From a virus, in IMG/VR virus record IMGVR_UViG_3300042502_001233, positions 207,125 through 271,124 of that record: 64,000 nucleotides of DNA; one strand, 5' to 3'. Both the position numbers and the translations under genes were made by a program. Under the pieces are notes generated by a model. It did no database searches, was not told the origin of the DNA, and saw only the letters and a list, made by a program, of their open reading frames with translations. How positions within the stretch are numbered: the first letter of the stretch is position 1; every line of letters begins with the position of its first letter. Below, piece after piece: positions 13,472 through 33,056 of this stretch.

Positions 13472-16471
13472 TTATCTTCTATTATTTAAGTTTCCAAACA
13501 GCCACATATGTTCACCTCTAGGGTCTTGAACATTTCTATATGCTCTATGTTCTGGATTTATTTTTTTTGTTACCTCACCAGTTGCTGGGTTAGTTACTTT
13601 AGTTGTTGTTTGAGTATTTGATGAACCACCCAACCAACTATTTAAAATTGCTTTATTTTGTTTTTCTAATCTTTCTAAATTTTTAAACGAATGTTCAACA
13701 ACCCACAAAGCCATACCCAACGACATAAGCAAATCATCATGATACCCTTCCATGTGGTCTGGTCTACCATTTTTATAAACAAATGTTTTCATTTCTGATG
13801 TAAGTCTGCTTGAACGAATTTTAACACCGTTGGTTCTAATTTTATATTCTAAATTAGAAATCATAGGTAGACGAACGTTGGTTGCGTGAAATCCTGGGAT
13901 TTTGTTATCTTTGTTGAAATGTGTCAACTCTCTTTGTCTAGCAGAAAGAATTTTACCGTTGGCATTATCGTAATGCAAACGTTTGTAATCAAATTCTAAC
14001 AATTTCAATACTGTAGACACACCCATACCACCAGTAACATCGACTACGGTATATGCTTTGTATAAATTACCGTATTCTTCGACGATTTGAGCCAATAAAT
14101 CTGGTTGTATCTTACCTTGGTATTCCATCACCTCTTCCATTGTTGTAAAATCGATTACAACGATTGTAGAAGCATCTTCACCATCACCCCTAGATACGTC
14201 ACAATTATGTGTTGTAATGTGATGACACATAAATGTATGTGTCTCACATTCAAAATTGTAAACGTTACCAGTATATTTTGATTTATCTATATTTTTAATC
14301 CTAAAATAAATAAAATCTTTATTTTCATCAAAATGACATGATTTTATTGTTCTATCATTAATTACACTAAATTGGTTAAAATTAAACTTATTAAGTTTAG
14401 GGTCTAAAGCATCATTATTTAATAATTTTAGTAAATCTAAACTATCCTGATTAGCTAGTGTTAAATTATACGTTTCTTTTTGGTAAGTTATTTTACCACA
14501 AATTATTGATTCTTTAGCGTCTCTTAATTTATTCAAACACGATATAACCCCAAGTGAAAAAATGATATCTTGAATTGATTCTAATAATTCTAAATTAACA
14601 CTAACAAAAGAAATTTTAGAATTAACTTTATTTTTTTTAATAGTTTTAACCCAACACCCATCACTGTCAAAATAACCTTTTATTAATTCTATTTTATTTT
14701 CTTTAGAAATATATTTAACCCATTCAGATATTTTTTTACCATTAGAATACTGACCAAAATTTTCAATTAAAAAACCATATAACTCTTTTGAATTAAAAAC
14801 AATTTCATATGTTGTATCTTTTTCTATTATGGTTGGTTTTCTTTCAAATAATCGCCCAACTATTTCATATAATTTATCAACATAGTACGTTTCATTTTTA
14901 TTAAAACATACTGATATAGAATAATCATAGTTATTATAATGACCAACCCAACCATCTCCTAACCACATACCAATAAACCACCAAAAATCTTTATCATTTA
15001 AAGGGTTTTTTAACCAAAAATCTTCTCTTCCATTAAAATTATCACCCCATACGTCTTTAATTTCTATTTCTTTTTTATATATGTTAGGAACTTTAATCCA
15101 ATCATCAATTTTAATATCACTAACTTTTTTGTATTGAAAATCTAAATCCCAATATCTTTCATTAAATTTATACTTTTTATGTTTTTTATTATAGTTTCTA
15201 ATTAATTTAGAATCACTAACTAAAATAGGGTGTTCTTTAGTAAACTTGGTTTTTCTAAAGGTATTATCAACAGTAATTTCATAGATATCTTCATTAACAA
15301 CAGGGTAAATTTGTTTATTGATTATTTTAACGTAATCACCATTTTCAGATATTAAGTTATCATTACTTGAAACATCTTGAATATTAATCAAACCTCTATT
15401 AGTCAAGACTTTTTCGTCTGGCGGTAAACAACCCATAATGTATTGATGACCTTCTTGTGGTTCTTCCCAAATCCAAATTTCATTCTCAGCACCCAAAGTA
15501 TATTTAGGTTCCATAACGTTATTTTTATTTTGAAAATCAATATGTTCTTCAGCAATAACGTTACCACCAGACCCAATGAACGATACATCTAACTCTTGCG
15601 CAATCATTTTGGCATCGTTGTTCATACCCAAACACATTTCTTCATACCATGATGATGTTGGTTTCCAACCATCATTTAACATTCTCTCATATGATTCATA
15701 TGTGAATTCATATTCAATTTCTACATGGTCTTCTTTTAACCACCTAAGGTCTTTGTTGTAACGCAAATCCTCATACCATTTCATTTCAATAATATTGAAG
15801 TTGTTCTTTTTCTTTTTGGCTTGGTCATAAGTTTTGTAGTATAACGCATCCATACCTTTTGGTGTTGAAATAAGAGTAGCTTTACCCCCAGTACCTAACG
15901 CTGTAAGAGCAGCACCAAATACTTCGGCACCATTGTCAATATACGCAGCCTCATCCATTACAAGATAAGTCGGTGTAAAACCACGCAATGCATCCTTAGA
16001 TGTTGCAACCGCTTTAACACGGCTACCGTTAGGAAGTCTGATTTCTTTTTTAGAGTCAGTAATAAAGATTGATTTAGCTTCAGCCTTAGCGTTACCATAG
16101 TATTCGGCACCCCATACCCATCTAGGTAATTGACCCAAAAAATCTTTAATTTTTGCTAGGAACTCAAAAGCTAACTCTTGTTTGTTCGCGATGATAAGAA
16201 CCGCCTCTGGGTTGTCCTCATCGGCCCACCCAACTTTTATTGCCATATATGCTGCTGTTGTAGTAGACACACCAGCTTGTCTAGGTTTAGTAACTAAATT
16301 AAACCTGTGTTTATCGTATGCTTGTATAATTTCCTTTTGTCTAGGAAATAGTTTGAAAGGTACAAAACCTTCTTGCGTTTTGTCAAATGTTTCCAAATAC
16401 GTTTCAATGGCGTAAACTGGATTCATTAGACACTTTGTATATTCTTTAAATATTTCTTGTGTTGTCAACAT
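13472..16471 (-). CDS. terL: Terminase large subunit with in-frame intein
   Basis: 999 residues before splicing, 590 after. The ATPase half shows KPRQAGVST (62-70, Walker A) and YLVMDEA (169-175, Walker B). The nuclease half would read YIMG-CDVSRGDG once residues 348-756 are removed; the Asp of that motif is the first catalytic acid of the RNase H-like nuclease. The enzyme cuts and pumps DNA into the prohead through the portal. Without splicing the nuclease site would be disrupted, so intein activity is needed for packaging. It resembles T4 gp17 in length and order, and follows a terminator and a late-type motif at 16489. Confidence 0.95.
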   Translation of the reverse strand: MLTTQEIFKEYTKCLMNPVYAIETYLETFDKTQEGFVPFKLFPRQKEIIQAYDKHRFNLVTKPRQAGVSTTTAAYMAIKVGWADEDNPEAVLIIANKQELAFEFLAKIKDFLGQLPRWVWGAEYYGNAKAEAKSIFITDSKKEIRLPNGSRVKAVATSKDALRGFTPTYLVMDEAAYIDNGAEVFGAALTALGTGGKATLISTPKGMDALYYKTYDQAKKKKNNFNIIEMKWYEDLRYNKDLRWLKEDHVEIEYEFTYESYERMLNDGWKPTSSWYEEMCLGMNNDAKMIAQELDVSFIGSGGNVIAEEHIDFQNKNNVMEPKYTLGAENEIWIWEEPQEGHQYIMGCLPPDEKVLTNRGLINIQDVSSNDNLISENGDYVKIINKQIYPVVNEDIYEITVDNTFRKTKFTKEHPILVSDSKLIRNYNKKHKKYKFNERYWDLDFQYKKVSDIKIDDWIKVPNIYKKEIEIKDVWGDNFNGREDFWLKNPLNDKDFWWFIGMWLGDGWVGHYNNYDYSISVCFNKNETYYVDKLYEIVGRLFERKPTIIEKDTTYEIVFNSKELYGFLIENFGQYSNGKKISEWVKYISKENKIELIKGYFDSDGCWVKTIKKNKVNSKISFVSVNLELLESIQDIIFSLGVISCLNKLRDAKESIICGKITYQKETYNLTLANQDSLDLLKLLNNDALDPKLNKFNFNQFSVINDRTIKSCHFDENKDFIYFRIKNIDKSKYTGNVYNFECETHTFMCHHITTHNCDVSRGDGEDASTIVVIDFTTMEEVMEYQGKIQPDLLAQIVEEYGNLYKAYTVVDVTGGMGVSTVLKLLEFDYKRLHYDNANGKILSARQRELTHFNKDNKIPGFHATNVRLPMISNLEYKIRTNGVKIRSSRLTSEMKTFVYKNGRPDHMEGYHDDLLMSLGMALWVVEHSFKNLERLEKQNKAILNSWLGGSSNTQTTTKVTNPATGEVTKKINPEHRAYRNVQDPRGEHMWLFGNLNNRR
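14204..15430 (-). mobile_element. LAGLIDADG intein in TerL
   Basis: 1227 nt, 409 residues, in frame with both exteins. It starts with Cys (CLPPDEKVLTNRG, block A), has block B near TKEHPIL (residues 64-70), two LAGLIDADG-type motifs (WFIGMWLGDG at 151-160 and LIKGYFDSDG at 249-258), and ends HHITTHN followed by Cys+1 of the extein. All splicing residues look intact, so self-excision and homing are both plausible. The insertion point is the codon pair next to the nuclease catalytic Asp, a highly conserved target. Confidence 0.95.
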
Positions 16472-24453: not shown

Positions 24454-24875
24454 ACGGAACGTTGACTCCACATTAAAGAGATTGTTCTGGTTGGAATCCC
24501 AGTTAAATCATTACCTTCCATATTTACTGAATCGTAACCATATTTTTTCCAATATAAATCTTCTCTTTCTTTTTGACTCAACTCTCTTGTATAAACTTGA
24601 AAATCTGTGTGACAAGGTGGTAGCACCATATCTTTAAGTTTATGTGGTTGCCAAGCAGAAACTCTAAGTCTTCTAGAATCTGGGTTATTTTTTAACCCAT
24701 CTATTAATTCAGTTATTTGGTCAACACCTTCAAAGTTACGCCAACCAGAACCATAAATAGGTCCTAAATCACCAAAACGTTTAGAAAAGTCCTCATCGTT
24801 TTTAATTCGTTCAATAAATTCTTCCTGACTCAACGGTCTACCAGATTCATGTAAATCTTCTTTTTTTACTTTCAT
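24454..24875 (-). CDS. td: Thymidylate synthase, middle part (end of 5' exon)
   Basis: 140 codons plus 2 nt up to the splice site. It contains [22 protein letters not shown] and the catalytic Cys in [11 protein letters not shown], ending MWSQRSV. The frame would otherwise run into the intron and stop at 24432. It starts with an ATG that overlaps the TGA of the preceding fragment (ATGA). Adding one A to the A6 run at 24878-24883 joins the two frames into a continuous protein of about 400 residues. Confidence 0.9.
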
Positions 24876-25207
24876 TCTTTTTTATTTTTATTTATGTTAT
24901 TTAATTTCTCACATTCTTTTAGATACGCTTTATAAGCATCTCCATTCCAAATGTTACAGTCATTCTTTAAAAGATATTCTATTGAAGTATCACCTCGTAA
25001 GAACCAAAGAAGTTCTGTTACGATTGTTTTAAATGGCATCTTTTTGGTTGTAAGTAAAGGAAACCCATCTTTCATATCGTGACGTATTTGTCTTCCGAAT
25101 ACTGAGATTGTTCCTGTACCAGTACGGTCAGATTTAGGGGTGCCGTTATCAAGAATGTCTTGAAGAAGTTCCGTGTAATCTTTGTCTAACTTGTTTATAA
25201 ATCCCAT
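24872..25207 (-). CDS. td: Thymidylate synthase, N-terminal part
   Basis: 111 residues: [19 protein letters not shown] (phosphate-binding loop with the conserved Arg), [15 protein letters not shown] and [15 protein letters not shown]. The fragment ends in a Lys/Asn-rich stretch at the A6 run. The catalytic Cys is in the next fragment, so neither part is active alone. The break is a one-base shift: a sequencing error, a frameshift site or a split enzyme. The product makes dTMP from dUMP for phage DNA synthesis. Confidence 0.9.
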
Positions 25208-25231
25208 AGGCTTTTTCTTTTACGTTTTATT

Positions 25232-25384
25232 TTATCTAGTAGTAACTGTAGTATCAGCGCTATCATTTGTATCTTCTTCTTCATCTTTTATTTCTGTAAT
25301 GTGTTGATACCACAATGGGTTTGGTAATCCACTATAATGGTCCCATAACCCATCATCAATAAGATTTACTTTATTTTTCGTCAT
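25232..25384 (-). CDS. Short hypothetical protein
   Basis: 50 residues (MTKNKVNLIDDGLWDHYSGL..., ending in an acidic and then Thr-rich tail). The ATG overlaps the 3' end of the next upstream gene, which argues that it is translated. No function recognised. Confidence 0.55.
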   Translation of the reverse strand: MTKNKVNLIDDGLWDHYSGLPNPLWYQHITEIKDEEEDTNDSADTTVTTR

Positions 25385-25589
25385 TGAAATATTTGTTAAT
25401 AATTTCCAATCTATCTTCAGCGTCAGCTAAAAGGCGTAGTGATTCTGTAGCATCTGCTAAAAAATCGTTAGCAGTGTGGTCACCAATACCTACACCTTGG
25501 TTTTCTAATAAGTCTAAAGACATTAATGCTTTTTCTTTATCAGCTAGCGCTTGCGCTTTTAATGCTGATATTACTCTTGTTTTTCCCAT
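25371..25589 (-). CDS. Small helical hypothetical protein
   Basis: 72 residues, almost wholly alpha-helical (ISALKAQALADKEKALMSLD; DATESLRLLADAEDRLEIIN), probably a helical hairpin that dimerises. No family recognised. It sits 9 nt after the 25599 gene. Confidence 0.6.
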   Translation of the reverse strand: MGKTRVISALKAQALADKEKALMSLDLLENQGVGIGDHTANDFLADATESLRLLADAEDRLEIINKYFNDEK

Positions 25590-25598
25590 GTTTTTAAT

Positions 25599-25877
25599 TT
25601 ATTCGTCTTTTTGTAATTTTAAATATTCGTCTATTTGTTCTAAACTTGGTTTAGCGTTTTCGTGTTCTTTGGTAAAGTTGTAGGTTTTACCGTAGCTAGT
25701 TGTAATTTCTTTTGTACCTTCAAAAAACTCAATAAGTTCTTTTTTGGTACATGACTCAACAACATGTCCTTGGTCATCAATAATTAGGAAAATGTTACCT
25801 GTTGGAATATGATACGCTTTAAGCACATCACCTTCAAAATTTAACAACCCTAATCGTTTGTAGTCTTTGTTTTTCAT
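25599..25877 (-). CDS. Hypothetical protein
   Basis: 92 residues, beta-rich N-terminus (LNFEGDVLKAYHIPTGNIFL) and a charged helical C-terminus. The start shares a base with the upstream stop, indicating coupling. Function unknown. Confidence 0.6.
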   Translation of the reverse strand: MKNKDYKRLGLLNFEGDVLKAYHIPTGNIFLIIDDQGHVVESCTKKELIEFFEGTKEITTSYGKTYNFTKEHENAKPSLEQIDEYLKLQKDE

Positions 25878-26299
25878 TATCTTCTAATTAAAATGTATTT
25901 GTAATTTTTTTGTGGTATTTCAACTTCTGGTTCAGAAACTTTTCTAACAGACTCATAAACCTTTTGGTTAAAATGATAGTTGGTCAGTTTTACTTGAGCC
26001 ATGCGTACATATTCACCATCTGGACCCCTATGCACTAGATAACCATCAATTGTTGGGTAAAAATAAACCATACCACCTTTACATCTAGTGTTTTCAACCA
26101 AATCTCTATAGTTACCTCTAAATGTTTTGGTGTTAATAGGTTTAGTATTCATTACAACTTTACTGTGTTCATGAAAATCTATTGGACTATAAATTTTATG
26201 TTCATCCATTTCAATATGCATAAACATTGGCATATCAACAACACCAATAAAAGGACATCCTTCGACGTCCTTTACTGTTGTTTTATTTGTAATTAACAT
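25877..26299 (-). CDS. Hypothetical protein
   Basis: 140 residues. It contains a metal-ligand-rich stretch (MFMHIEMDEHKIYSPIDFHEH), then CKGGMVYFYPTIDGYLVHRG; one short beta-rich domain is likely. No family assignment. It is separated by 2 nt from the KTSC gene upstream. Confidence 0.6.
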   Translation of the reverse strand: MLITNKTTVKDVEGCPFIGVVDMPMFMHIEMDEHKIYSPIDFHEHSKVVMNTKPINTKTFRGNYRDLVENTRCKGGMVYFYPTIDGYLVHRGPDGEYVRMAQVKLTNYHFNQKVYESVRKVSEPEVEIPQKNYKYILIRR

Positions 26300-26301
26300 A
26301 A

Positions 26302-26769
26302 TTAGTCAGTTACCACACTGGCACCAGCAGAAGCTGTTATGTTCTCGTAATCACCCATGGTTGATTTTAGCTTGGTGTACAATGCTGGGTCTATACTATC
26401 AGTTGTTTCATAGTAAGCAATTACAGCTTGCATCTTTGCAATCATTTCTTTGGTGTAATGATTTACTTTGATTTGTTTGTCAGCGTCTTTTAACTCGTTA
26501 ACTTCTTTGATGATAGCTGCTGTGTCAACCTTGTCTAATTTTTGAAAATCATATTTTTTGATATGAGAATTGAAAATAACACCTTGACTGTCTGCTATTT
26601 CAAATCTGGTGTAATCTGTCTCAGAAACATTAGGGTACTTGTACTGCCCACCGTTGTTAAAAATAATAACCAAATCTTTGGTTTGAGTGTTGTAGGTTGA
26701 AGCGCAAATATTAGAAGATGCGTAGATTGCTTTAACCAAATTGTCTTTTGTTTGTTTTTTTAAAATCAT
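26302..26769 (-). CDS. KTSC-domain protein
   Basis: 155 residues. Residues 18-75 match the KTSC pattern: YNTQTKDLVIIFNNGGQYKY, a TDYTRFEIADSQG segment, and FNSHIKKYDF. KTSC domains are common in phage and bacterial proteins of unknown molecular role. The rest is a helical Lys-rich extension and a Thr/Ala/Ser tail. Confidence 0.8.
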   Translation of the reverse strand: MILKKQTKDNLVKAIYASSNICASTYNTQTKDLVIIFNNGGQYKYPNVSETDYTRFEIADSQGVIFNSHIKKYDFQKLDKVDTAAIIKEVNELKDADKQIKVNHYTKEMIAKMQAVIAYYETTDSIDPALYTKLKSTMGDYENITASAGASVVTD

Positions 26770-26790
26770 TCTTTTTGTATTAATAAAATG

Positions 26791-27027
26791 TTATTGTGCG
26801 TGTGTTTTATAGGAAACAATATCTTTCATTGGATATATTTTCCCAGTGCTAGTTAGCGAATTGTTGATGTCATCTCGTTCATCAACTATTACGATGATAT
26901 AATCACCAGTAATCATAAGACCACAATCCAAATATTCTAATCTTGTGACTGAAGGTAAACCCTTGGTAATTACCGAATCTTTAAGCAGAAGTTCAACTTT
27001 GCTAAATTTAGGTGCTGTATTTGTCAT
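26791..27027 (-). CDS. Small hypothetical protein, first gene of the td-side operon
   Basis: 78 residues from the ATG at 27027 (MTNTAPKFSKVELLLKD). The longer frame begins at a TTG that falls inside the -7 box and is rejected. Beta-rich (YLDCGLMITGDYIIVIVDER). No family recognised. Divergent from clpC. Confidence 0.65.
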   Translation of the reverse strand: MTNTAPKFSKVELLLKDSVITKGLPSVTRLEYLDCGLMITGDYIIVIVDERDDINNSLTSTGKIYPMKDIVSYKTHAQ

Positions 27028-27045
27028 GTCATTATATAGTTTGTA

Positions 27046-27053
27046 CAAATATA
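27046..27053 (-). promoter_or_regulatory. Host-type promoter for the td-side operon
   Basis: TATATTTG on the minus strand, 19 nt before the 27027 ATG, with a TTG about 20 nt further upstream. Confidence 0.6.
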
Positions 27054-27078
27054 CGAATATTTATCTAATAAATCAATA

Positions 27079-27109
27079 TTGCATTATTAAAAATAAATTA
27101 GTATCTTTG
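27079..27109 (+). promoter_or_regulatory. Host-type promoter for the clpC N-terminal half
   Basis: TTG at 27079 and TATCTTTG at 27102-27109 with 20 nt between, the spacing of Bacteroidota primary-sigma promoters; the ATG follows 26 nt later. It implies early or constitutive transcription. Confidence 0.65.
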
Positions 27110-27135
27110 CTAAAAATAAAATTAACCCGTTTACT

Positions 27136-28944
27136 ATGAACAGAGAAATTTATCCTAAAGTTAAAATAATTATGAATCAAGCTATCAAAGAAGCTAAAAG
27201 TTTCGATGATACTAAAATAAGACCTGAACATATTATCCTATCAATGATGATTGATAATGATAATGAATGTACTAGGCTTTTAAATCAAATGAAAGTAGAT
27301 ACCTTTGACTTATATGATAAAGTCTCTGATTATTTAAGACAAAGCGATTTAACCCCAAGAGTTGCAAACACAAGTAGAAAAACGTTACCATTTTCAGATG
27401 AAACAAAAGCAATTATCAAAAGCCTTGATAAAGAATGTGAAAAGTTAAATCATAATATGATTGATACAACACATGTTATGCTAGGTATTTTAGCAGCAAA
27501 GCTACCGATAAATGAATTGTTATCTAAAAGTGGTATAACGTATAACCGTTTTAAAAAAACATTAAAAGATATGGAAAATTACGATGTAAAAAACAGTGCA
27601 TTTAGTGGTGATGACCACGAAGAAAACGACAGTTTTAGAAAAAAACCTAACAGACCAAACGACTCTAAATCAAAAACACCAGTGTTGGATAACTTCTGTA
27701 GAGACGTATCCAAAGCTGTAGAAAAAGGAGAAATAGACCCAGTGGTTGGTCGTGAAGTTGAAATCAAAAGAGTTTCACAAATACTTTCACGTAGAAAGAA
27801 AAATAACCCAGTACTTATCGGAGAACCAGGCGTTGGTAAAACAGCCATCGTAGAAGGACTCGCACAGCTTATCTATGAAGGTAACGCACCTAGAACACTT
27901 ACTGGTAAAAAAATATTTACCTTGGATTTGGCTAGTATCGTTGCTGGTACAAAATATAGAGGTCAGTTTGAAGAACGAATGAAAGCCGTGTTGGAAGAAT
28001 GTAAAGCCAACCCAGATATTGTGTTATTTATTGACGAGTTACACACAATTGTTGGTGCTGGGAATTCCTCAGGTTCGTTAGATGCTAGTAACATCTTTAA
28101 ACCAGCTTTGGCCAGAGGTGAAATACAAATCATCGGAGCAACAACACTAGATGAATACCGCGAAAACATTGAAAAAGATGGTGCGCTTACTAGACGTTTC
28201 CAACAAGTTCTTGTTGAGGAACCTACTCTAGAGCAAACCAAAACTATTTTGATGAATATCAAAGAAAAATACGAAAAACATCACAGAGTAAAATATACTG
28301 AAGAAGCTATTGACGAGTGTGTTAAACTATCTTCTAGATACATAATGGATAGAGCTATGCCAGACAAAGCCATCGATGTATTGGATGAAGCTGGCGCCAC
28401 CACAAACGTTAGTGTTGAAAAACCAGAAAATGTCAAGACTTTAGAATCTCAAATTAGTGAAATCCAAGTTCAAAAAAATGAAGTTGTTAAAAAACAACAA
28501 TACGAAGAGGCGGCCAAGTTAAGAGATAAAGAAAAAGAATTAGATGACAAATTAAAAGAAGCCAACGCTAAATGGCAAGAAGAATTAGAATCTAATATTA
28601 CGGAAGTTGGTGTTGACTTGATTTCAGAAGTTGTTTCTATGATGACTGGAATCCCACTTAATAAAATTTCAACACAAGAAACCAAAAAATTACTTAACAT
28701 GGACAAAGCTCTTATGGGTAAAGTTATCGGTCAAGACGTAGCTGTATCTAAAGTAGTTAAAGCCATCAAACGTAACCGTATCGGTATCAAAGATAAAAAC
28801 AAACCAGTTGGTTCGTTCATCTTCTTAGGTCCTACTGGAGTTGGTAAATGTATTTGTGGTGATACAGAAATAATAGTCAGAAATAAAGTAACTGGTGAGA
28901 TTAAAATTATTAACATAAAAAATATCGTACCCGACACCAATTAG
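27136..28944 (+). CDS. clpC: ClpC-type AAA+ unfoldase, N-terminal half fused to Int-N
   Basis: 602 residues; 1-571 are ClpC. Clp-N repeats occupy ~1-145. The first AAA+ module has GEPGVGKT (229-236) and VLFIDELH (296-303). A UVR-like helix pair (residues ~435-470, [20 protein letters not shown]) marks it as ClpC rather than ClpA. It ends in the second Walker A, GPTGVGK, followed directly by 31 intein residues ([10 protein letters not shown]...) and a TAG. On its own it lacks the rest of the second AAA+ ring, so activity requires joining to the 30808 product. ClpC partners bacterial ClpP; a phage copy may redirect host proteolysis (inference). Confidence 0.93.
28849..28941 (+). mobile_element. 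Int-N of an atypically split intein
   Basis: 31 residues: Cys1, block A (CICGDTEII), and a strand [12 protein letters not shown], then stop. Block B is absent here and is found in the partner, so the split lies between blocks A and B. That matches the short-Int-N (atypically split) class, not the usual split at the endonuclease position. Confidence 0.9.
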
Positions 28945-28967
28945 TCCGAACTTTTTAAAACTTCATG

Positions 28968-28975
28968 ATATTTAT
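28968..28975 (+). promoter_or_regulatory. Late-type motif before the VSR-like endonuclease
   Basis: ATATTTATTATAAAATAG, 15 nt before the ATG; the insertion carries its own promoter-like site. Confidence 0.55.
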
Positions 28976-28990
28976 TATAAAATAGATATT

Positions 28991-30211
28991 ATGAAAATAA
29001 AAACGAGTAAAGGTATTAAAGAAATAAATGAAGTTTTTACAGATTTGGAAAGTTTAAAAAACCAAGTCTTAAAATTAGATAAAAACATACGCTACGATAA
29101 CGAAACAATTAAAAAAGAAATAGAATCACTGATGGTTAAATTAAAAGAACAAGAAGGTGTTGTTTCATTATCGTTGATGCGTGGTTGGTTGGTGAAAAAT
29201 TACGGTTTTAAAACTAAGAAATGGGGTAATATAGAGTATTTCATTGAACGTGGTTGGAATGATAAAGACGCTTTGATTGAGTTGGATAAACGTAATAAAG
29301 AATTAAAACAAAGGAACCGTTTATGTGAAGAGTATTGGATTAATAAAGGTTACACTAAAGAAGAAGCTATTAACGAAATTTCTAAACAACAACAAAAATC
29401 ATCTAAATGTGTTAAAACTTATCATGGTAAATCTAAAAAAATGTTAGCTGATAAAGGTTACACCGAAGAAGAAATAAAACGTATTTGTTTAACACCAACA
29501 AATTCTGAATTCTGGGTTAATAAGGGGTATTCTGAAAATGAGGCAAAAGATATTATTAGTAAAAACCAAACTGAAGCTGCGAAACAAGTTGATTTTGAAA
29601 AAAGACTAATACCATCAAATATTGAGTATTGGGTTGAGAAAGGTTTTAATTATCAACAAGCTAAACTAAAAGTAACTGAACAACAAACAACTTTTAGTTT
29701 AGCTATATGTATTCAAAAATATGGTGAAGAAGAAGGTAAAAAAAGATTTACTGAAAGACAAAATAAATGGTTAAATTCATTATTAACTAATGGTAATATG
29801 GTTATTGGATATTCTAAAATATCTCAAGATTTGTTCTATAAAATTTTAGAAATATATGATATTAGTGATAAAGATAAGGTTTATTTCGCAACACACAATA
29901 GTGAGTTCAAATTAGGTAAAAAAGAAGGTGGTGTTTGGTTATATGATTTTACCGATATTAAAAATAAAAAAATAATTGAGTTTCATGGTGATATGTTCCA
30001 TGGAAACCCAAATAAATATAAAGCTGGTGATTATCCACACCCATTTAGGAAAAATATAACCGCACAAGAAATGTGGAATAAGGATAAAAGTAAATTAGAT
30101 GTTGCCTTAGAAGAAGGTTTTGATGTGTTGGTTATATGGGATTCAGAATATAGATGGGGAAACAAACAAGAAATAATAAATAAATGTGTTTCTTTTCTAA
30201 ATAAAAAGTAG
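28991..30211 (+). CDS. VSR-like homing endonuclease between split clpC halves
   Basis: 406 residues. The central part has repeated DNA-binding-type units of about 40 residues: EYWINKGYTKEEA, EFWVNKGYSENEA, EYWVEKGFNYQQA. The C-terminal ~110 residues carry a VSR/EDxHD-type nuclease core: KKIIEFHGDMFHGNP, a W-x-K-D-K-S helix, and FDVLVIWDSEYRW. This nuclease family is known from 'fractured' phage genes, where it lies between split-intein halves. It probably cuts the unsplit clpC allele at the Walker A codons and so spreads the whole insertion. Confidence 0.88.
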   Translation: MKIKTSKGIKEINEVFTDLESLKNQVLKLDKNIRYDNETIKKEIESLMVKLKEQEGVVSLSLMRGWLVKNYGFKTKKWGNIEYFIERGWNDKDALIELDKRNKELKQRNRLCEEYWINKGYTKEEAINEISKQQQKSSKCVKTYHGKSKKMLADKGYTEEEIKRICLTPTNSEFWVNKGYSENEAKDIISKNQTEAAKQVDFEKRLIPSNIEYWVEKGFNYQQAKLKVTEQQTTFSLAICIQKYGEEEGKKRFTERQNKWLNSLLTNGNMVIGYSKISQDLFYKILEIYDISDKDKVYFATHNSEFKLGKKEGGVWLYDFTDIKNKKIIEFHGDMFHGNPNKYKAGDYPHPFRKNITAQEMWNKDKSKLDVALEEGFDVLVIWDSEYRWGNKQEIINKCVSFLNKK

Positions 30212-30222
30212 TATATTTGTAT

Positions 30223-30600
30223 ATGAAAATAAAATTTAATATAAAACTATATAAGATAAAAATTATACTGTATATTTCAGATGATTTAATTAGTGTGGCT
30301 GACAAGATTAAGAAAAACCACAAAGTAAAACTATATAAATTATCGAATAAAGAAATAAAAAAAATAGATGGTTGTGTTATTGGTCAATTTATGGAAAATG
30401 ATAATTTACTTTATGTTTTGATTCAATCTAAAAATGGTAAGGTATGTATTAACACACTAACACACGAAATTTATCATTTAACTAGTAAAATAATGAAACA
30501 TAATGATTTTGATTTTTATCATTCTGACGAACCATTTGCAAGATTAAATGCTTTTTTAAATAAAAAAATTATTAAAAATAAAAAAATTAAATTAATATGA
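30223..30600 (+). CDS. Small protein with HExxH motif, cargo of the clpC insertion
   Basis: 125 residues from the ATG at 30223; the preceding TTG lies in a TATATTTG box that may serve as its own promoter. LTHEIYHLTSKI near residue 83 is an HExxH zinc-protease-like motif, followed about 20 residues later by DEPFARLNAFL, where a third ligand (Glu) could lie as in ImmA/IrrE-like proteins. No DNA-binding domain is seen. It overlaps the next gene by 4 nt. Protease activity is a guess from the motif. Confidence 0.6.
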   Translation: MKIKFNIKLYKIKIILYISDDLISVADKIKKNHKVKLYKLSNKEIKKIDGCVIGQFMENDNLLYVLIQSKNGKVCINTLTHEIYHLTSKIMKHNDFDFYHSDEPFARLNAFLNKKIIKNKKIKLI

Positions 30601-30800
30601 ATGAAATTAATGCTGGTTGTTATAAATTAACAACAACTAAAAAAACCACAAATGGTTTGAAAACACAAGAATATATTGTTTTAATTAGTGGTTATAAACC
30701 CTTCTTAAAGATGGAATCGTTCTGGTCAATAAAAGATAATTGTTTTGTTAGTTCAGATATTCTCAGAGCTGTAGAAACTAAATACGAAAAAATTAATTAA
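30597..30800 (+). CDS. Small hypothetical protein, cargo of the clpC insertion
   Basis: 67 residues, beta-rich with Lys/Thr (NAGCYKLTTTKKTTNGLKTQ). The ATGA overlap with the HExxH gene suggests a two-gene unit, possibly enzyme plus regulator. It ends 7 nt before the Int-C gene. Confidence 0.55.
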   Translation: MNEINAGCYKLTTTKKTTNGLKTQEYIVLISGYKPFLKMESFWSIKDNCFVSSDILRAVETKYEKIN

Positions 30801-30807
30801 TAAAAAT

Positions 30808-32469
30808 ATGGAAGATTTAAAAAAATTCATGGATGACACTGTTAAATGTGAAATTCTAAAATACGCTAGTTATGACGATAAAAATGGTGGTATTGCTAAA
30901 CCAGAATATAAATTTACTGTTCTAATCAGAACGCTAAATTTTGAAAATAAAACTAATAATGATATAAAATTAATTATTGATGAGGCTGGTTTGTTATTAA
31001 ATTACGATAATTGTCATGTTTCAATGTTTTCTATCGGTAAACTAAACGGAGAAGTTTTTTCAGTTAATGAAACTGATGATGACTTTGCTGTCTTAGATAA
31101 ACATTTAAGTGATGGTAAAACAATTGTTTTATATTCTGCTAAAATTGATACTGGAAAAGTGTATTACAGATATTCTTTGGTTAAAGATAAACCATTAAAT
31201 AGAATGGAAGAAATTAAAAAAAGAGTTGATAAATCAGATAATGTTTTATTATTTGATAAACACGAATTAGAGTCTTTAAAAAAGATTACTAAAACAACCA
31301 AAATATCTGATTATGAAGTTTTAACTGATGATGGTTTTGTTGACATAGAGGCATTACACGAAACAATACCGTATGAAGTATATCATCTAAAATTAAAAGA
31401 CGGTAAAGAACTTAAATGTGCTGATAATCATATTGTATTCGTTAGTGAATACCATGAAACTACTTTTGAACCAATTGGTTTAACCGAAATATTTGTTAAA
31501 AATTTAGAAATAGGTTCGTTTGTTATGGTGTCTGATGATAACGGTAATCTAACAGAATCTGAAGTTGTTGAACTTACGAATTTAGGTTATGAAGAAGTAA
31601 TGTATGACCTTGAACTAAAAGAAGGTTCCAATAGACGATATTATACCAATGGTATTTTATCACATAATACGATGTTGGCTAAATTGTTAGCAGAAGAAGT
31701 ATTTGGTGATGCTGATTCATTGTTTAGAATCGATATGTCTGAGTATATGGAGAAATTCTCTGTGTCGAGATTGGTTGGTCCACCTCCTGGATATGTTGGG
31801 TATGAACAAGGTGGTCAATTGACTGAGAAAGTTCGTAGAAAACCACACTGTGTTGTTTTGTTTGATGAGATTGAAAAAGCTCATGAAGATGTATTCAACT
31901 TGTTATTACAAATGCTAGATGAAGGTCATTTGACTGACGGATTAGGTCGTAAAGTTAATTTCAAAAATGCTCTTATTATCATGACATCTAACATTGGTGT
32001 TAAAGAAGCAAACTCATTTGGTAAGACAATGGGTCTTGAGACACCAAACGGAATGTTAAATGAAGAAAACAAAGCGCGCGCTATTATCGAAAAAGCTCTT
32101 AAAAAGAAATTCAAACCAGAGTTCTTAAACCGTATCGATGAAGCAATTATCTTCAACAGCCTTAAACGCGAAGACATCCACGAAATCATCAACGTTGAGT
32201 TTGAAAAACTTAGAAAAAGAGTTGTTGAAATGGGTTACGATTTAACCATTGAACAAGCAGCGTTAGATTTCTTGGCAGAACATGGATACGATGAAGAATA
32301 CGGAGCTAGACCTCTTACCAGAACACTTCAACATTATGTAGAAGATACGGTGGCTGATGAAATTTTGGCTGACCATATTGTCGAAGGACAAACCATCAAT
32401 ATCGTTTATGATAAAGATAACGATACATTGATTGTAAAACAACCAAAAACACCCAAACCAAAAAAATAA
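30808..32469 (+). CDS. clpC: Int-C fused to the C-terminal half of ClpC
   Basis: 553 residues. 288-553 complete the second AAA+ module: TMLAKLLAEEVFG follows the Walker A Lys, then HCVVLFDEIEKAH (Walker B), the pore loop SRLVGPPPGYVGYE, sensor IIMTSNIG and the C-terminal D2-small domain (YGARPLTRTLQHYVED). Residues ~165-287 are intein. Residues 1-~160 are an unrecognised extension not found in usual Int-C parts. Joined to residues 1-571 of the first half, the product is an 837-residue ClpC with an intact GPTGVGKT. A downstream ATG (31204) could give a shorter Int-C. Confidence 0.92.
   Translation: MEDLKKFMDDTVKCEILKYASYDDKNGGIAKPEYKFTVLIRTLNFENKTNNDIKLIIDEAGLLLNYDNCHVSMFSIGKLNGEVFSVNETDDDFAVLDKHLSDGKTIVLYSAKIDTGKVYYRYSLVKDKPLNRMEEIKKRVDKSDNVLLFDKHELESLKKITKTTKISDYEVLTDDGFVDIEALHETIPYEVYHLKLKDGKELKCADNHIVFVSEYHETTFEPIGLTEIFVKNLEIGSFVMVSDDNGNLTESEVVELTNLGYEEVMYDLELKEGSNRRYYTNGILSHNTMLAKLLAEEVFGDADSLFRIDMSEYMEKFSVSRLVGPPPGYVGYEQGGQLTEKVRRKPHCVVLFDEIEKAHEDVFNLLLQMLDEGHLTDGLGRKVNFKNALIIMTSNIGVKEANSFGKTMGLETPNGMLNEENKARAIIEKALKKKFKPEFLNRIDEAIIFNSLKREDIHEIINVEFEKLRKRVVEMGYDLTIEQAALDFLAEHGYDEEYGARPLTRTLQHYVEDTVADEILADHIVEGQTINIVYDKDNDTLIVKQPKTPKPKK
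31300..31668 (+). mobile_element. Int-C of the split intein
   Basis: About 123 residues. KISDYEVLTDDGF starts the intein-homologous part. Block B is LKLKDGKELKCADNHIVF. Blocks F/G are EEVMYDLELKEGSNRRYY and NGILSHN, followed by Thr+1. The terminal His-Asn and Thr+1 are compatible with splicing. Confidence 0.9.
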
Positions 32470-32472
32470 TAT

Positions 32473-32497
32473 AAAACCCACGAAAGTGGGTTTTTTT
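32473..32497 (+). terminator. Terminator after clpC
   Basis: aaaacccac-gaaa-gtgggttttttt hairpin with GNRA-like loop, 4 nt after the clpC stop. Confidence 0.9.
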
Positions 32498-32507
32498 GTT
32501 TTAGAGA

Positions 32508-32515
32508 ATATTTAT
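32508..32515 (+). promoter_or_regulatory. Late-type motif before the metalloprotease gene
   Basis: ATATTTATTGTTATG: the motif ends 4 nt before the ATG. Confidence 0.5.
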
Positions 32516-32519
32516 TGTT

Positions 32520-33056
32520 ATGAAACAAATGATAAAACAATTATTGCGAGAAGCCATTGATAAAACAATCACATGTAAAAAATGTGATTGGCATTGGAAA
32601 GAGTCTGAATCAGACAAAAAAGATTTGTACGTTTGTCATAAATGTGGTCATGATAACACACCAAAAAAAGAAAATATTAACGAACGTTTGCTAACCAAAC
32701 ATAAAGAAGATATTTTGGATGTTGCTGATTTTGTTAATTTTGCTAAAAAATATTTAGATATTGATGATGATATTAAAGTTGAATTGGCTTTTGAAAGAAC
32801 ACCAGACCTTAGAACAACCGCATATTACAACAACGGTGAAAAACGTATGAAGATATATGTTAAAAATAGAGCTATTATAGACGTATGTCGTTCAATTGCT
32901 CATGAATTAACACACCACAAACAAAATCTAGAAGGAAGAATAACAGATGCCAGTAAAGATGGTCAAGACGGTAGTGACATAGAAAATGAAGCTAACTCAG
33001 TTGCTGGAGTTATAATAAGAAAATGGGGTCGTATACATCCTGAAATTTATGAATAA
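32520..33056 (+). CDS. Zinc-ribbon metalloprotease with virion leader
   Basis: 178 residues. Leader MKQMIKQLLRE (1-11), zinc ribbon with two CxxC pairs (CKKC 19-22 and CHKC 39-42), then a metallopeptidase-like domain with IAHELTHHKQ (HExxH at 128-132) and IENEANSVAG, which would supply a downstream Glu ligand. The leader ends L-R-E. I infer a protease that is packed in the head and injected. It overlaps the next leader-bearing gene by 8 nt. Confidence 0.75.
   Translation: MKQMIKQLLREAIDKTITCKKCDWHWKESESDKKDLYVCHKCGHDNTPKKENINERLLTKHKEDILDVADFVNFAKKYLDIDDDIKVELAFERTPDLRTTAYYNNGEKRMKIYVKNRAIIDVCRSIAHELTHHKQNLEGRITDASKDGQDGSDIENEANSVAGVIIRKWGRIHPEIYE

What the first reader, a model, noticed from the sequence alone, without database searches (positions are those of the whole stretch)
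27136..32469. A phage ClpC gene fractured inside Walker A by an atypically split intein with a VSR-like endonuclease
Seen: clpC stops after GPTGVGK plus a 31-residue Int-N. 1.9 kb later an Int-C resumes at Thr and completes GPTGVGKT and the second AAA+ ring. Between them are a VSR-like endonuclease and two small genes. Known: 'fractured genes' with this endonuclease family and inteins with very short Int-N exist in phage metagenomes. Inference: a phage Clp unfoldase that exists only after trans-splicing would be an unusual host for this system, and would make Clp function dependent on two separately controlled messages. The N-half has a host-type promoter, and the insertion has a late-type one.
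Basis: partly seen in the sequence, partly recalled or inferred. Interest (0 to 1): 0.92.

Follow-up and report, generated by a model that had tools for sequence, protein, structure and literature searches.

The report
Phage Clp unfoldase split by intein
A giant phage carries its protein-unfolding enzyme ClpC as two separate genes that must be stitched together after translation by a mobile, self-splicing protein element; near-identical phages carry the same gene unbroken, so the invasion looks recent and is easy to test.

Summary
clpC (837 aa when spliced) stops after GPTGVGK plus a 31-aa Int-N. It resumes at Thr after an Int-C in a second ORF, with a Vsr/I-Bth0305I-like endonuclease gene and two small genes between. 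Two IMG/VR contigs (L010, L011) carry the same clpC, 99% identical in protein, intact and lacking exactly these 2,820 bp. Of 77 related phage loci with both halves, 59 are empty at this site and 18 occupied. Intein and endonuclease similarity does not track extein similarity, as expected of horizontal homing. All 80 best-matching bacterial clpC loci are uninterrupted.

It is a 'fractured gene' with an atypically split intein: a known kind in an apparently new host protein. Additions: (1) the ring-1 Walker A is a second intein site, and three loci encode ClpC in three pieces; (2) this Int-C carries a ~130-aa unrelated extension, and passenger genes vary between loci; (3) promoter motifs suggest early N-half, late endonuclease, early C-half, so 'late insertion' is only partly right; (4) one contiguous relative looks re-fused; (5) the phage also encodes ClpP and at least three more fractured genes. 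Splicing and homing are inferred, not shown.

The parts
27102..27109 (+). TATCTTTG, Bacteroidota-type -7 promoter motif of the clpC N-half
   Evidence: 34 nt upstream of ATG; motif enriched upstream of genes in the window; conserved in L010, L002-L004
27136..28848 (+). clpC N-extein, residues 1-571 (Clp_N, ring 1, linker, start of ring 2 up to GPTGVGK)
28849..28944 (+). Int-N, 31 aa starting Cys1, plus TAG stop
28968..28975 (+). ATATTTAT, second (late-type) promoter motif of the phage, before the endonuclease gene
   Evidence: conserved in relatives
28991..30211 (+). Vsr/I-Bth0305I-like homing endonuclease, 406 aa, helical repeats plus C-terminal nuclease domain
30212..30219 (+). TATATTTG, host-type promoter motif directly after the endonuclease stop, before the C-half operon
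30217..30600 (+). passenger ORF, 127 aa (125 from ATG 30223), HExxH (HEIYH), PHROG 1365, weak SprT-like
30597..30800 (+). passenger ORF, 67 aa; stand-alone homologues in other phages and a diverged one in the fractured sbcC-like locus of the same genome
30808..31197 (+). ~130-aa extension fused in frame to the N-terminus of Int-C; no relatives found
31198..31668 (+). Int-C, 157 aa with its leader, ending SHN
31669..32469 (+). clpC C-extein, 266 aa from Thr572 (ring 2, D2-small)
32474..32497 (+). hairpin AAACCCAC-GAAA-GTGGGTTT followed by T run, terminator-like end of clpC
   Evidence: read directly from the sequence

Best explanation
This is a fractured phage clpC. A mobile element, made of an atypically split intein plus a Vsr-like homing endonuclease gene and passenger genes, sits exactly between the Walker A Lys and Thr of the second AAA+ ring. 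Both halves are translated separately. The 31-aa Int-N (Cys1) docks on the 157-aa Int-C; trans-splicing joins Lys571 to Thr572 and restores an 837-aa ClpC, probably the partner of the phage's own ClpP. The endonuclease, from its own late-type promoter motif, would cut intein-free clpC alleles of co-infecting phages so that repair copies in the whole insertion. Shown by sequence: anatomy, exact empty site, patchy distribution, element/host incongruence, conserved promoter motifs, folds. Inferred: splicing, DNA cleavage, timing, ClpCP pairing.
For: Exact empty alleles at ~94% DNA identity with 78 synonymous vs 10 non-synonymous codon differences, so both halves have been under selection as a protein. 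Int-C matches solved inteins by profile and fold; catalytic-block residues invariant in 23 copies; Int-N 28-38 aa at 25 split sites. Endonuclease matches Vsr and I-Bth0305I by fold, weakly Vsr by profile. Patchy occupancy, 18 of 77, and element similarity decoupled from extein similarity. Phage ClpP present.
Against: No experiment shows splicing, cleavage or homing. The Intein_splicing match is below Pfam's cut-off. The 130-aa extension on Int-C has no parallel in relatives and could hinder assembly. The recognition site of the endonuclease is unknown.
Confidence: 0.85

Rival explanations
1. The split intein is dead or too slow: the element has destroyed clpC, the halves are non-functional relics, and the phage lives without its own ClpC.
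For: No splicing data. Int-C carries an unusual ~130-aa extension. Some related sites have decayed endonucleases (L005 ring 1).
Against: Both halves keep full-length open frames and differ from the intact allele mainly by synonymous changes (78 vs 10). Intein blocks are conserved and both halves have promoter motifs.
Confidence: 0.1
2. The two halves work as a non-covalent two-subunit Clp ATPase without splicing.
For: Both ORFs are complete genes with their own promoter motifs.
Against: The break lies inside the P-loop, between Lys and Thr that both contact nucleotide (established knowledge of Walker A), and both edges carry intein blocks.
Confidence: 0.03
3. Assembly artefact, or an RNA intron rather than an intein.
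For: The contig is metagenomic.
Against: The layout recurs in many contigs from different metagenomes. No Rfam intron in 27000-32600; the only match is a sub-threshold miRNA model. Intein blocks lie at both edges.
Confidence: 0.01

Closest known systems
Fractured genes with split inteins and the Vsr-like (EDxHD) homing endonuclease family (Dassa et al. 2009, doi 10.1093/nar/gkp095; paper not held, known from memory and from citations in PMC11766414 and PMC3653736)
   Same: Gene broken at a conserved catalytic motif, Int-N and Int-C on the two parts, free-standing Vsr-like endonuclease ORF between them, intact alleles elsewhere
   Different: Host protein is a Clp unfoldase; variable passenger genes lie between endonuclease and Int-C; a foreign segment is fused to Int-C; a second intein site occurs in the same protein. 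Whether Dassa et al. saw any of these could not be checked
Atypical split inteins AceL-TerL (Int-N 25 aa) and GOS-TerL (Int-N 37 aa), PMC11766414; VidaL (PDB 6vgv)
   Same: Very short Int-N starting Cys (here 31 aa), long Int-C; Int-C profile and fold match VidaL; named-phage relatives are terL inteins
   Different: Different host protein and insertion site; about 40% identity over the intein to the best named-phage terL intein
Homing endonuclease I-Bth0305I (EDxHD family, PDB 3r3p; described in PMC3943268) and Vsr
   Same: Nuclease domain fold (Foldseek prob 0.98-1.00); long multi-domain layout with a separate DNA-binding part
   Different: Only 23-25% identity in the aligned part; N-terminal helical repeats not compared; cleavage untested
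Split PolB intein of jumbo phage MIJ3 (PMC6892783)
   Same: Split intein with an endonuclease ORF between the halves in a jumbo phage
   Different: Host gene is DNA polymerase and the endonuclease there is called HNH; MIJ3's relative of our endonuclease lies elsewhere, beside recA
Multiple inteins in one protein, e.g. haloarchaeal MCM (PMC10643990) and mycobacterial DnaB (PMC6195587)
   Same: Two intein sites in one ATPase
   Different: Those are contiguous inteins; in L005, L009 and L016 both are split, so three polypeptides are needed

Membership tests
Fractured gene (Dassa type) | Host gene divided into two ORFs that together make one known protein | tested here: met
Fractured gene (Dassa type) | Int-N at the end of the first part and Int-C at the start of the second extein | tested here: met
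Fractured gene (Dassa type) | Separate ORF for a Vsr-like endonuclease between the parts | tested here: met
Fractured gene (Dassa type) | Intact intein-free allele exists | tested here: met
Fractured gene (Dassa type) | Protein trans-splicing of the halves | not testable with these tools
   needs bench work
Atypical (short Int-N) split intein | Int-N of about 16-37 aa instead of ~100 aa | tested here: met
   31 aa here, 28-38 aa at all 25 split sites
Atypical (short Int-N) split intein | Catalytic residues: Cys1, block-B His, C-terminal His-Asn, +1 Cys/Ser/Thr | tested here: met
   Cys1; CADNH; SHN|T; invariant in the alignment
EDxHD/Vsr-like homing endonuclease | Vsr-like nuclease fold | tested here: met
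   Foldseek to 1vsr, 1cw0, 3r3p with prob 0.98-1.00 although E-values are 0.02-0.17
EDxHD/Vsr-like homing endonuclease | Conserved active-site acidic and His residues | tested here: inconclusive
   D319, E330, H337 invariant in 21 relatives; not mapped onto the I-Bth0305I active site
EDxHD/Vsr-like homing endonuclease | Site-specific cleavage of the intein-free allele | not testable with these tools
   needs purified protein
Group I or II intron | Intron RNA model match in the insertion | tested here: not met

The most novel reading that the evidence does not exclude
A mobile split-intein island that has specialised on a phage unfoldase: related atypically split inteins occupy both Walker A motifs of ClpC, so some phages must assemble one ClpC from three polypeptides by two non-crossing trans-splicing reactions. 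The split serves as a cargo slot (C5 methyltransferase, HExxH protein, small genes), some cargo being fused in frame to Int-C and so released with the excised intein. Promoters are arranged early/late/early, and a contiguous intein (L080) re-arose from a split one by an in-frame deletion.
Probability: 0.4. Interest if true: 0.8.

Novelty: new member of a known kind. Interest (0 to 1): 0.62.

Why it matters
I found no record of inteins in phage Clp unfoldases in the held open-access library. The locus family shows empty, contiguous, split, split+endonuclease and split+endonuclease+cargo states of one gene in close relatives, so the order of events by which inteins become split, and perhaps re-fuse, can be tested directly. 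It also supplies new short-Int-N inteins of the kind used for protein labelling, and natural three-piece ClpC proteins in which two related split inteins must avoid cross-splicing. A phage ClpCP whose ATPase must be spliced before it can work would be a new angle on phage control of proteolysis.

Tried and rejected
RNA intron: no Rfam match. Assembly artefact: rejected by recurrence. Passenger genes as universal parts of the element: rejected, they differ between loci, and the 67-aa gene is an ordinary stand-alone gene in other phages. Relatives of the Int-C extension and of the HExxH gene in IMG/VR: none found. Structure of the extension: low confidence, not interpreted. T4-style late motif TATAAATA: only 5 upstream hits; the clearly enriched second motif is ATATTTAT. 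MIJ3's relative of the endonuclease as part of its split polymerase: not so, it lies beside recA. A BLAST test of junction continuity over-extended into inteins for some viral loci and was replaced by exact motif and gap checks. A first synonymous/non-synonymous count was out of register by one codon after the junction and was redone. Two tree runs stopped on script errors and were redone. Dassa 2009 is not held, so details of that paper are from memory or citing papers.

Full report
OBSERVATION. The described feature is present. ORF 27136-28944 encodes Clp_N, a first AAA+ ring, a UVR-type linker and the start of the second ring, and ends GPTGVGK followed by 31 residues [31 protein letters not shown] and a TAG stop. 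ORF 30808-32469 ends its intein part with YYTNGILSHN and continues TMLAKLL, completing Walker A and the second ring plus the D2-small domain. The joined exteins are 837 aa. The inserted DNA is 28849-31668, 2,820 bp. One phage family model, PHROG 4871, is covered to position 510 by one half and from 510 by the other.

MORE THAN CHANCE. Two contigs (L010, L011) carry the same clpC without the insertion. DNA identity is about 94% over 3.9 kb on the left and 2.5 kb on the right, and the gap is exactly between the Lys and Thr codons. Between the two alleles there are 78 synonymous and 10 non-synonymous codon differences in 837 codons. Of 77 phage loci with both halves in the contig, 59 are empty at this site and 18 occupied; all 80 best-matching bacterial loci have an uninterrupted second-ring Walker A. 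Counts include near-identical contigs (for example L012-L014). The bacterial matches are nearly all Bacteroidota, at most about 59-60% identical, which with the TAnnTTTG promoters suggests a Bacteroidota host (inference).

THE INTEIN. The Int-C profile matches solved inteins Cat, gp41-1, VidaL and, weakly, NrdJ-1. The model of residues 159-287 (pLDDT about 80-95) matches many inteins with Foldseek probability 1.00. In 23 copies the block-B CADNH and the terminal residues SHN, among others, are invariant. Int-N is 28-38 aa at 25 split sites, like AceL-TerL (25) and GOS-TerL (37) (PMC11766414). The named-phage relatives of the intein are in terminase large subunits.

THE ENDONUCLEASE. ORF 28991-30211 has helical repeats and a C-terminal nuclease domain. 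A profile of 21 relatives finds only Vsr among solved structures, weakly (E 0.23). The AlphaFold model (pLDDT 82) matches Vsr and the homing endonuclease I-Bth0305I with probability 0.98-1.00. Endonucleases at the same clpC site share the N-terminal part but come with two different C-terminal endings (EFHGDMFHGNP... and EFDGTYYHR...TPENS).

MOBILITY. The window and L015 share 57% of extein residues but 90% of Int-C; with L017, extein 54% and endonuclease 81%; with L101, extein 53% and endonuclease 85%. The empty L020 is 84% in extein. Rank correlation of extein with endonuclease similarity is only 0.24, of endonuclease with Int-C 0.61. This is what homing between diverged phages predicts.

SECOND SITE AND THREE-PIECE ClpC. 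The first-ring Walker A (GEPGVGK|T) is also occupied in 12 of these loci: by a related atypically split intein without an endonuclease (L009, L051, L053, L073), with a decayed endonuclease (L005), with an endonuclease (L016), or by a different contiguous intein of 364 aa starting with Ala (L012-L014, L021, L022, L030). L105 and L111 have yet another insertion a little earlier, GEPG|CGKT. L005, L009 and L016 need two trans-splicing reactions for one ClpC. The first-ring split inteins form one group (96/99), placed among the second-ring ones in weakly resolved trees.

CARGO. Between endonuclease and Int-C the genes differ. Here they are an HExxH protein (PHROG 1365) and a 67-aa protein; L002 and L003 share a ~70-aa gene; L005 has a C5 DNA methylase (E 3.7e-42); L012 a 112-aa protein. 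In the window, L004/L007/L008, L006 and L016, extra segments are fused in frame upstream of Int-C; by eye only those of L004, L007 and L008 resemble each other. After splicing such a segment would leave with Int-C (inference).

PROMOTERS. TAnnTTTG is enriched upstream of genes (5.3 vs 1.17 per kb). ATATTTAT is a second motif: 21 of its 29 occurrences in the window were found within 100 nt upstream of gene starts, including terL. The clpC N-half has TATCTTTG 34 nt upstream. The endonuclease has ATATTTAT 23 nt upstream, conserved in most relatives. A TAnnTTTG starts 1 nt after the endonuclease stop in the window and five relatives, and close by in others. The background in coding sequence is 0.83 per kb. 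I read this as early N-half, late endonuclease, early C-half; the names early and late are inferred from motif type only.

A CONTIGUOUS FORM. L080 has a 173-aa unsplit intein at the second-ring site. It keeps the Int-C leader (DEIQKRIKKTNNVLLFDKHELESLKK) that otherwise starts the separate C-half, and it groups with split forms L008/L009 (80/74). Split relatives have a similar GATAGA-like stretch at the Int-N tail and the Int-C head that could have served for an in-frame deletion. Re-fusion is therefore plausible, not shown.

THE SAME GENOME. The 362-kb record also encodes a full-length ClpP and at least three further fractured genes: nrdA, an RNA ligase split inside KxDG|S, and an SbcC-like ATPase split inside Walker A with a 29-aa Int-N. 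The nrdA identification rests on Pfam, the RNA ligase on a weak Pfam match, the SbcC-like one on reading the sequence. terL and a glycosyltransferase-like gene carry contiguous inteins with LAGLIDADG-like domains.

VERDICT. A well-supported new member of the fractured-gene kind in a new host protein, with variant features. Splicing, homing and timing are untested. The literature check is limited to an open-access library; no paper linking inteins to phage ClpC or ClpB was found.

Noticed in passing
L096 2923-6600 (-) = G000:C1 ~114,422-118,099: Fractured nrdA in the same genome: canonical ~100-aa Int-N, a TnsA-like endonuclease ORF of 346 aa between, C-half resuming at VHN|CIEVMQ.
   Followed up: partly
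L094 2856-5380 (-) = G000:C1 ~24,855-27,379: Fractured RNA ligase, broken inside motif KxDG|S, with a Vsr-like endonuclease ORF (305 aa) between the halves.
   Followed up: partly
L095 1077-5183 (-) = G000:C1 ~79,576-83,682: Fractured SbcC-like ATPase, broken inside Walker A (NQGGK|C...SHN|TTLT), 29-aa Int-N, endonuclease 42% identical to the clpC one, and a diverged copy of the 67-aa passenger gene at the same relative place; early motif before the N-half and late motif before the endonuclease.
   Followed up: partly
window 13472-16471 (-): Terminase large subunit with a contiguous intein containing a LAGLIDADG-like domain.
   Followed up: no
L097 2298-5578 (+) = G000:C1 ~180,797-184,077: Glycosyltransferase-like ORF with a contiguous LAGLIDADG-type intein, preceded by a free-standing Vsr-like endonuclease gene.
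   Followed up: no
L099 1489-2208 (-), match at G000:C1:59649-60173: Full-length ClpP (239 aa, E 1.5e-58) in the same phage, so a complete phage ClpCP is possible.
   Followed up: partly
L105 ~1160-2810; L111 ~2230-2825: A different intein inserted in the ring-1 Walker A at GEPG|CGKT instead of GEPGVGK|T; L105 has an endonuclease-like ORF inside.
   Followed up: no
L012 3134-4225; L021 4901-5992; L030 2763-3854: Contiguous 364-aa intein at the ring-1 Walker A that starts with Ala instead of Cys/Ser and ends VTHN|T; splicing class not tested.
   Followed up: no
L005 4978-7000: Cargo of this fractured clpC includes a C5 DNA methyltransferase and a shortened endonuclease; its ring-1 site keeps only a 42-aa endonuclease remnant.
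   Followed up: no
window, both strands: ATATTTAT is a strong candidate for a second phage promoter class, 21 of 29 occurrences lying within 100 nt upstream of gene starts, mostly 10-28 nt.
   Followed up: partly
window 32520-33056 (+): The ORF after clpC has CxxC pairs near its N-terminus and an HELTHH motif, a possible second small metallopeptidase.
   Followed up: no
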